In this document: positions 12,148 to 12,900 of the stretch, piece by piece | How positions within the stretch are numbered: position 1 is the first letter of the stretch | How the letters are laid out: each line of letters begins with the position of its first letter | Source of the DNA: Candidatus Gastranaerophilales bacterium | GTDB taxonomy: Bacteria > Cyanobacteriota > Vampirovibrionia > Gastranaerophilales > Gastranaerophilaceae | Assembly (NCBI GenBank): GCA_944324235.1 | Contig: CALUVN010000011.1 | Span: 1 to 45,773, forward strand | Length of the DNA stretch: 45,773 nt | Direction of reading: 5' to 3' | Program-made: the position numbers and the translations under genes | The notes under the pieces: model-generated | What the model saw: the letters and a program-made list of their open reading frames with translations, nothing else | What the model was told of the DNA's origin: nothing | Database searches by the model: none

Positions 12148-12220
12148 AGCGGAAGACGAGGTTCGAACTCGCAACAACCTGCTTGGAAGGCAGGGACTCT
12201 GCCAATTGAGTTACTTCCGC
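12148..12220 (-). tRNA. tRNA-Gly (anticodon UCC)
   Basis: Read on the minus strand, GCGGAAG (12220-12214) pairs with CTTCCGC (12155-12149). The anticodon arm CTGCC-TTCCAAG-CAG gives anticodon TCC, and the T-loop GTTCGAACC is standard. The discriminator base is U. CCA is not encoded: the next three bases are TTT. The other two tRNA genes in this window do encode CCA. Confidence 0.95.
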
Positions 12221-12245
12221 ATGAAGTTTATTCTTCTGTGTCTAT

Positions 12246-12274
12246 AATCTACCTTAAAAACAGATTTTTTGCAA
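12246..12274 (-). promoter_or_regulatory. Probable promoter of tRNA-Gly
   Basis: On the minus strand TTGCAA (12274-12269), a 17-base spacer and TAGATT (12251-12246) lie about 26 bases before the mature tRNA. It may also serve mscS and rlmH downstream. Confidence 0.5.
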
Positions 12275-12395
12275 GTGTTTTTTTTTATTAATATAGCTAG
12301 CTCTAAAGTATTAGTACATTTTTGTTAAATATTTTTTTCTAAGTTTATTCTGTCGAGTGGTGAAATTTGCTGATAAAAAGTTTATTATATATATG

Positions 12396-12562
12396 TAAGC
12401 TCACTAGGTCCAGACACTTTTTCGGGGTTGCGACAAGAGATTTCTTTGAGCCGGTTTGGTTGAAAACCTGTGGGCTTATATCTTAAAAGTATACTATGTA
12501 CTATTTTTATAAACATTAAAACCGTTTGAAGATAGGCTTGCAAGAAATTGCAGGTCTTTTTT
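12396..12562 (+). ncRNA. Candidate structured RNA (independent sRNA or ppiC leader)
   Basis: This lies in the ~400-base gap between tRNA-Gly and the PpiC-like gene. TAAGCTCAC (12396-12404) pairs with GTGGGCTTA (12470-12478) with one G-U. Inside it, AGGT (12406-12409) pairs with ACCT (12466-12469) and CCAGAC (12410-12415) with GTTTGG (12454-12459). The result is a long rod-like hairpin. After an A/T-rich linker comes a strong terminator (12534-12562). A weak promoter, TTGCTG (12367-12372), 17 bases, TATATG (12390-12395), would start transcription near 12402 or just upstream, so the exact 5' end is uncertain. The ~165-nt size recalls 6S RNA, but no SRP, tmRNA, RNase P or known riboswitch core was recognised. 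The 12275-12366 part shows nothing else. Confidence 0.5.
12534..12562 (+). terminator. Strong terminator 57 bases before the ppiC-like gene
   Basis: AGGCTTGCAA (12534-12543) and TTGCAGGTCT (12548-12557) form a 10-bp stem with two G-U pairs around a GAAA tetraloop, followed by a T run to 12562. It either ends the upstream candidate RNA or acts as an attenuator in the leader of the downstream gene. Confidence 0.85.
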
Positions 12563-12618
12563 ATTTGTTTTATTTCTGTTATTATTGTGAATGTAGAAAG
12601 AAAAAGGAGTTTTAAAAT

Positions 12619-12900
12619 ATGACAACTGAAGTAAGAGCAAGTCACATTCTTGTTAAAACCGAGCAGGAAGCAAAAGATTTATATGATGAAATTAAAAACG
12701 GTAAAGCATTCGCTGATGTTGCCGCTGAAGTTTCTCTTTGTCCTTCCGGAGCAGTGGGTGGAGATTTAGGTTACTTTGGCAGAGGCATGATGGTTAAACC
12801 TTTTGAAGATGCAGCTTTTAATATGGAAGTTGGCGAAGTTTCTCAGCCTGTGCAGACTCAATTCGGATGGCATTTGATTTATTTAACCGATAAGAAATAG
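12619..12900 (+). CDS. Parvulin-type peptidyl-prolyl isomerase (PpiC-like)
   Basis: This 93-residue protein is a single stand-alone parvulin domain that speeds cis-trans isomerisation of prolyl bonds. Family landmarks are the opening RASHILVKTE with the active-site His, FADVAAEVSLCPSG, the GGDLGYFGRGMMVKPFEDAAF block and the final FGWHLIYLTDKK. There is no signal peptide, so it works in the cytoplasm, like E. coli PpiC (also 93 residues). AAGGAG lies at good spacing before the ATG. The next gene begins four bases after its stop. A terminator-like hairpin sits in its leader. Confidence 0.93.
   Translation: MTTEVRASHILVKTEQEAKDLYDEIKNGKAFADVAAEVSLCPSGAVGGDLGYFGRGMMVKPFEDAAFNMEVGEVSQPVQTQFGWHLIYLTDKK

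What the first reader, a model, noticed from the sequence alone, without database searches (positions are those of the whole stretch)
12367..12562. Candidate structured RNA with strong terminator before ppiC
A long rod-like hairpin (19 paired positions in three segments), an A/T linker and a 10-bp GAAA-loop terminator follow a plausible promoter. The total length is about 165 nt, and no known RNA class was recognised. Either a stand-alone small RNA or an attenuator/riboswitch controlling the PpiC-M24-SpoU-DnaA-RuvA unit would be notable, since dnaA lies downstream.
Basis: partly seen in the sequence, partly recalled or inferred. Interest (0 to 1): 0.6.

Follow-up and report, generated by a model that had tools for sequence, protein, structure and literature searches.

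The report
New small RNA of gut Gastranaerophilales
The hairpin before ppiC is a real, previously uncatalogued small RNA gene, kept in nearly 200 of the related gut-bacterium genomes searched, with its own promoter and terminator; it is a free-standing RNA rather than a switch for the ppiC-dnaA genes, and its target is still unknown.

Summary
Window 12395-12478 folds into a rod (P1 plus P2) followed by a linker and a terminator ending near 12562. A covariance model built from relatives finds it in 192 of 382 genomes of the class, all in the window's own family (27 genera of Candidatus Gastranaerophilales), nearly always one copy per genome. In a 73-sequence alignment 18 of 19 stem pairs carry compensatory changes. 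The tip sequence UUCGGGGUUGCGAYAA is nearly invariant. No Rfam family matches; SRP RNA and a probable 6S RNA lie elsewhere in the genome.

It is a free-standing gene. A promoter with fixed spacing puts the start at 12395 across 70 loci, with an upstream palindrome at -97. Either P1 is followed directly by a U tract (42 of 73) or a separate terminator follows. ppiC has its own TATAAT promoter after that terminator, and in other genera the RNA sits beside unrelated genes (leuB, tcdA-like, pyrF, diguanylate cyclase). This argues against a ppiC-dnaA attenuator.

Most likely it is a trans-acting regulatory sRNA presenting the GGGUUG hairpin and, in this lineage, a conserved single-stranded tail. 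Whether its partner is mRNA or protein was not resolved. It is a new RNA family of a known kind.

The parts
12298..12313 (.). palindromic operator-like site TAGCTCTAAAGTATTA (consensus TAATNCTNNAGNATTA), at -97 from the predicted start
   Evidence: at most 1 mismatch in 50/72 loci within 170 nt upstream against 0.003 expected; usually at -97, otherwise about -83 or -64. The window copy has 2 mismatches. At most two exact sites per genome in the genus.
12347..12365 (+). conserved upstream element plus -35-like region ATTCTGTCGAGTGGTGAAA
   Evidence: positions -48 to -30 conserved without gaps in 70 loci; the only exact match to the pattern in the genome
12383..12388 (+). -10 box TATTAT
   Evidence: TATNAT at exactly -12 to -7 of the first RNA base across 70 loci; also found
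12395..12478 (+). core of the small RNA (rod-shaped hairpin domain)
   Evidence: R1 match 91.8 bits, R2 match 79.1 bits; covariation
12396..12409 (+). P1, 5' arm
   Evidence: pairs with 12466-12478; all 13 modelled pairs have compensatory changes in 73 sequences
12466..12478 (+). P1, 3' arm
   Evidence: as above
12410..12415 (+). P2, 5' arm CCAGAC
   Evidence: pairs with 12454-12459; 5 of 6 pairs have compensatory changes
12454..12459 (+). P2, 3' arm GUUUGG
   Evidence: as above
12421..12436 (+). near-invariant apical core UUCGGGGUUGCGACAA: short stem UCG/CGA, hexaloop GGGUUG (12425-12430), bulged pyrimidine
   Evidence: nearly invariant in A1 and A3; the inner stem itself is only weakly supported
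12479..12533 (+). A/T-rich 3' tail with conserved CTATGTAC (12494-12501) and GTTTGAAGAT (12524-12533; GTTTGATAT elsewhere)
   Evidence: exact GTTTGATAT within 160 nt of P1 in 27/72 loci against 0.0014 expected, mostly in ppiC-linked genera
12534..12562 (+). intrinsic terminator, 10-bp stem, GAAA loop, T run
   Evidence: equivalent hairpin plus T run visible in ppiC-linked relatives
12580..12585 (+). -10 box (TATTAT) of the separate ppiC promoter
   Evidence: same position as exact TATAAT in relatives, 19/35 against 3.9 expected
12619..12900 (+). ppiC, downstream neighbour, not part of the RNA gene
   Evidence: Pfam PF13616 E 7.5e-25
12148..12220 (-). tRNA-Gly (TCC), divergent neighbour, not part of the RNA gene
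   Evidence: same arrangement in most ppiC-linked relatives

Best explanation
A free-standing small RNA gene of Gastranaerophilales. Shown by sequence comparison: a single-copy structured RNA with a covarying P1-P2 rod, a near-invariant UUCGGGGUUGCGAYAA tip, a dedicated promoter starting at 12395, and an intrinsic terminator at 12534-12562. Inferred: a DNA-binding regulator acting at the -97 palindrome and the -48/-36 element controls its synthesis. Inferred and less certain: the RNA acts in trans, P1/P2 serving as a stable scaffold that presents the GGGUUG hairpin (and, in ppiC-linked genera, the single-stranded tail with GUUUGAUAU) for base pairing with target mRNAs. Rough odds: real structured RNA about 0.97; free-standing gene about 0.92; regulatory base-pairing as the mode of action about 0.5. 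The score given is for the whole statement.
For: Conservation in 27 genera, essentially one copy per genome. Covariation in 18/19 pairs, 96.5% of cells paired against 75.3% shuffled, falling to 18-53% when slid. Gap-free promoter logo at fixed distance from the first P1 base in 70 loci, unique in the genome. Palindrome in 50/72 upstream regions against 0.003 expected. P1 followed directly by a U tract in 42/73. Variable neighbours: ppiC, leuB, a TcdA/ThiF-like gene, pyrF, diguanylate cyclase, inverted ppiC. ppiC has its own promoter. Length changes in the U-rich segments are not multiples of three, so it is not a coding sequence. Conserved unpaired tail.
Against: No transcript data were available. 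No target found: the excess of sites complementary to the loop lies inside coding sequence on both strands, so it is no evidence. No Hfq detected in the genome, although divergent cyanobacterial Hfq can escape such models (PMC6202907). A G-rich loop is not the usual C-rich anti-ribosome-binding-site seed. One lineage (g40) seems to keep promoter, P1 and terminator with a different loop.
Confidence: 0.55

Rival explanations
1. A protein-binding (ribonucleoprotein) RNA: the GGGUUG hairpin in its rod binds one conserved protein, sequestering or guiding it, as 6S, CsrB-type or SRP RNAs do, without base pairing to mRNA.
For: Single copy, both ends closed into a rod, near-invariant apical motif despite free drift of the stem sequence; no Hfq found; no target signal.
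Against: No candidate protein; no CsrA-type GGA motif in the loop; the extra conserved unpaired tail in part of the family is more typical of a pairing RNA.
Confidence: 0.3
2. Transcription attenuator or riboswitch that controls the ppiC-M24-spoU-dnaA-ruvA genes: the rod is the sensor and the 12534-12562 hairpin the switchable terminator.
For: Lies directly upstream of ppiC on the same strand with a terminator between in this genus and many others.
Against: ppiC has its own -10 box after the terminator; at least five other contexts exist, with convergent or inverted genes downstream; in many genera P1 is directly followed by the U tract, leaving no expression platform; no anti-terminator pairing between rod and terminator was seen in the predicted folds.
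Confidence: 0.05
3. A divergent member of a known RNA family (6S, SRP or other) that the Rfam models miss.
Against: No Rfam match at E below 2; no Rfam hit on divergent copies except an unrelated SRP elsewhere on L091; SRP RNA (74 bits) and a 6S candidate (39 bits) are on other contigs of the same genome; the 80-90 nt core lacks 6S size and central bubble.
Confidence: 0.05

Closest known systems
Yfr1, the cyanobacterial sRNA (PMC2190773)
   Same: Single-copy, lineage-wide small RNA in the same broad phylum; ultraconserved core in otherwise variable stems; ends in a Rho-independent terminator; often at a conserved genomic position.
   Different: Yfr1 is 54-69 nt, two separate stem-loops with an unpaired ACUCCUCACAC; here one 84-nt rod with UUCGGGGUUGCGAYAA at its tip. 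No sequence or structural resemblance beyond style.
6S RNA (RF00013)
   Same: Rod-like free-standing bacterial RNA with own promoter.
   Different: 6S is about 185 nt with a large central bubble mimicking an open promoter; the family model does not match here and a separate 6S candidate exists in the genome.
Trans-acting intergenic bacterial sRNAs in general
   Same: Promoter immediately upstream of the first stem, intrinsic terminator, conserved unpaired segments, changing neighbours.
   Different: G-rich hexaloop rather than a C-rich seed; no Hfq found; target unknown.

Membership tests
6S RNA (RF00013) | match to the Rfam covariance model | tested here: not met
   no match at 12221-12618 at E up to 10; a 39.1-bit candidate lies elsewhere
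6S RNA (RF00013) | about 180-nt hairpin with large central bubble | tested here: not met
   conserved core is 79-90 nt; no such bubble in the covarying structure
Signal recognition particle RNA (RF00169/RF01854) | model match with domain IV | tested here: not met
   no match here; SRP RNA found on contig C8
Yfr1 | ultraconserved ACUCCUCACAC between two stem-loops | tested here: not met
   motif absent from the sequence; definition from PMC2190773
Cis-acting attenuator/riboswitch of ppiC-dnaA | conserved location upstream of the controlled gene | tested here: not met
   other contexts in many genera
Cis-acting attenuator/riboswitch of ppiC-dnaA | controlled gene transcribed through the element | tested here: inconclusive
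   ppiC has its own promoter-like -10 box after the terminator in relatives, but no RNA data
Free-standing bacterial sRNA gene | conserved secondary structure supported by compensatory changes | tested here: met
   18/19 pairs, 0/500 shuffles reach the observed values
Free-standing bacterial sRNA gene | own promoter and terminator | tested here: met
   by sequence conservation only:
Free-standing bacterial sRNA gene | detected discrete transcript | not testable with these tools
   no RNA-seq available
Trans base-pairing sRNA | conserved complementarity to target mRNAs | tested here: inconclusive
   loop-complement sites are in excess, but inside coding sequence on both strands
Trans base-pairing sRNA (Hfq-dependent) | Hfq in the genome | tested here: inconclusive
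   no PF17209 match, but divergent cyanobacterial Hfq may be missed (PMC6202907)

The most novel reading that the evidence does not exclude
A lineage-wide, single-copy ribonucleoprotein or global-regulator RNA of Gastranaerophilales, on the scale of 6S or CsrB, which presents a UCG-GGGUUG-CGA hairpin to a yet unknown protein and is controlled by its own dedicated DNA-binding regulator.
Probability: 0.25. Interest if true: 0.72.

Novelty: new member of a known kind. Interest (0 to 1): 0.5.

Why it matters
No small RNA of Gastranaerophilales, a common but little-studied lineage of gut bacteria in the cyanobacterial phylum, was found in the papers searched. This candidate is unusually well supported for a purely comparative one: family-wide, single copy, strongly covarying, with a dedicated promoter. 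Its near-invariant tip and near-unique regulatory site make clear tests possible, and the alignment could be offered to Rfam as a family.

Tried and rejected
Rfam at gathering and at E up to 10: only chance-level matches (snoRNAs, BTnc060, carA). 6S and SRP identity: rejected, both lie elsewhere. Phage origin: the 16-base core occurs in 7 viral contigs but none has the fold. Members outside the family: the one phylum-level hit (G345, 23 bits) lacks the core and was discarded; weak hits L310, L311 and L313 were discarded as chance, while L308/L309 (g30) look real and L312 (g40) looks like a real member with another loop. Target search with the loop complement TCGCAACCCCGA: excess over reversed control in family genomes, but the sites read through coding sequence (for example Ala-Thr-Pro codons in what I take, by eye, to be mnmE and rsmI) on both strands, so rejected as target evidence. 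Promoter regulon: no other exact copy in the genus; near-matches looked like coding chance or a repeat in G001. Alternative inner helix AAGA/UCUU: formed in many sequences but absent in divergent genera, so not part of the family structure. Literature searches found no description.

Full report
Observation. The three-segment rod (19 pairs), the A/T linker and the GAAA-loop terminator are present as described. Folding energy alone is only moderately better than shuffled sequence (z -2.8 and -2.1), so comparison was needed. Rfam gave nothing above threshold in the region and only chance-level matches at E up to 10.

Conservation. A DNA search of the genus found the element in 4 of 4 genomes at 84-90% identity in the relatives, and in 81 of 191 family genomes. 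A 29-sequence alignment (A1) shows a stem of 13 pairs, of which 12 have changes on both sides; 98.4% of cells are paired against 88.8% after shuffling. A covariance model (R1) found it in 118 of 191 family genomes. Forty regions were fetched, mostly divergent copies, and a 74-row alignment (A3) gave 18 of 19 pairs with compensatory changes, 284 such cells against 66 shuffled, with 96.5% of cells paired against 18-53% in slid controls. A3 was fitted to the R1 structure, which leans its counts towards that structure; A1 was aligned by sequence alone and gives the same answer. The refined model R2 matched 192 of 382 genomes of the class at E up to 0.05, all in the window's family, 27 genera, nearly always one place per genome. 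The phylum search gave no credible member outside the family. Named records with the core are mostly Candidatus Gastranaerophilales or Melainabacteria; a contig of the window's genus (G002:C23, 26,970 bases) has the same length as CALUTF010000023.1 in that list, a Gastranaerophilales bin, from which I infer the host lineage. Two records with other names, 'Fusobacterium sp. CAG:439' and 'Muribaculaceae', carry clear copies; I take them for misnamed or contaminated bins, which was not tested. The 16-base core in seven viral contigs is not accompanied by the fold.

Anatomy. P1 (12396-12409 with 12466-12478) varies freely in sequence but keeps its pairs. P2 (12410-12415 with 12454-12459) changes from CCAGGC/GUUUGG to CCUGUC/GACGGG or CUGAAC/GUUCAG in distant genera. 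The tip reads UUCGGGGUUGCGAYAA almost everywhere and can form UCG-GGGUUG-CGA with a bulged pyrimidine. This inner stem is invariant in most genera, so it is weakly tested; its mean predicted probability is 0.44 and a competing AAGA/UCUU helix is possible in 45 sequences. Divergent copies such as UUUCG-GGGUUA-CGAAA (L308, L309) and UUUUC-UAGAUU-GAAAA (L312) fit it. Length changes in the U-rich segments are not multiples of three, so the element is not a coding sequence.

It is its own gene. With the first base of P1 set to +1, 70 upstream regions line up without gaps: TATNAT at -12 to -7, A-tract at -22 to -17, GGTGAAAA at -36 to -29, ATTCT at -48 to -44 (the call numbers the base before P1 as -1). 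The combined pattern occurs exactly once in G000, at this locus. A palindrome TAATNCTNNAGNATTA lies at -97 (or about -83, -64) in 50 of 72 loci with at most one mismatch, against 0.003 expected; in the genus it is nearly confined to this locus. In the window the palindrome has two mismatches (12298-12313). At the 3' end, P1 is followed directly by at least 5 T in 8 bases in 42 of 73 copies, giving an RNA of roughly 90 nt; in the window's genus and other ppiC-linked genera the RNA runs through a tail to a separate terminator. That tail carries CTATGTAC and GTTTGATAT; the latter is present exactly in 27 of 72 loci against 0.0014 expected per 160 nt.

Not an attenuator of ppiC-dnaA. But ppiC has a -10 box after the terminator: exact TATAAT in 19 of 35 loci against 3.9 expected, TATTAT at 12580-12585 in the window. 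In other genera the RNA stands after leuB, beside a TcdA/ThiF-family gene or pyrF, between a pilin-like gene and a diguanylate cyclase, or divergent from ppiC. A cis element would not change its gene so often.

Mechanism. Shown by comparison: structured RNA, promoter, terminator, single copy. Inferred: regulated synthesis by a DNA-binding protein at the palindrome. Open: what the tip binds. A scan for sites complementary to the loop found more hits in family genomes than the reversed control, but inspection placed them in coding sequence on both strands, so it is not evidence for targets. Hfq was not found, but cyanobacterial Hfq is divergent (PMC6202907), so this is inconclusive. I favour a trans base-pairing sRNA (about 0.5) over a protein-binding RNA (about 0.3).

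Comparison with the known. SRP RNA (74 bits to RF01854) and a 6S candidate (39 bits, under the 46.4 cut-off) are elsewhere in the genome. The nearest analogue in style is Yfr1 of cyanobacteria (PMC2190773), a single-copy RNA with an ultraconserved core, but sequence and architecture differ. Literature searches found no earlier description; the library held is open-access only. Verdict: a new RNA family of a known kind, confirmed by comparison, with function still to be established.

Noticed in passing
window 12479-12533; L011, L012, L018, L031, L076 and others: Second conserved module (CTATGTAC ... GTTTGATAT) between the rod and the terminator in ppiC-linked genera; possibly a pairing region or a regulatory site.
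   Followed up: partly
window 12298-12313; L317 and L318 near position 1501: The -97 palindrome also occurs once elsewhere in G002 and in G003, in both cases next to TGTACTATTTTTAC-AAA-CATTAC, which resembles the RNA's own tail; G002's copy is near a REP-type transposase-like ORF. May mark another target of the same regulator or a second RNA.
   Followed up: partly
L114:2528-2567 (same as L030:1573-1612): Partial tandem second copy of the apical core directly after the first RNA in one genome (G151).
   Followed up: no
L011, L016, L017, L018, L027 upstream of the RNA: The divergent tRNA-Gly gene is repeated in tandem (2-5 copies about 100 nt apart) in several relatives; the window has one.
   Followed up: no
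L312 (g40): Promoter, P1 and terminator resemble the family but the tip is UUUUUC-UAGAUU-GAAAA instead of the GGGUUG loop; suggests the loop can be replaced while the scaffold stays.
   Followed up: partly
G039 and G166: Two or three copies of the RNA per genome, some at contig ends, so possibly assembly duplication.
   Followed up: no
L124 and L172: Records named Fusobacterium sp. CAG:439 and Muribaculaceae carry clear copies of this RNA; probably misnamed or contaminated bins.
   Followed up: no
L037 (G000 contig C4:43592-43775): Probable 6S RNA of this lineage scoring 39.1 bits, below Rfam's cut-off of 46.4; the Rfam model may miss it in the whole lineage.
   Followed up: partly
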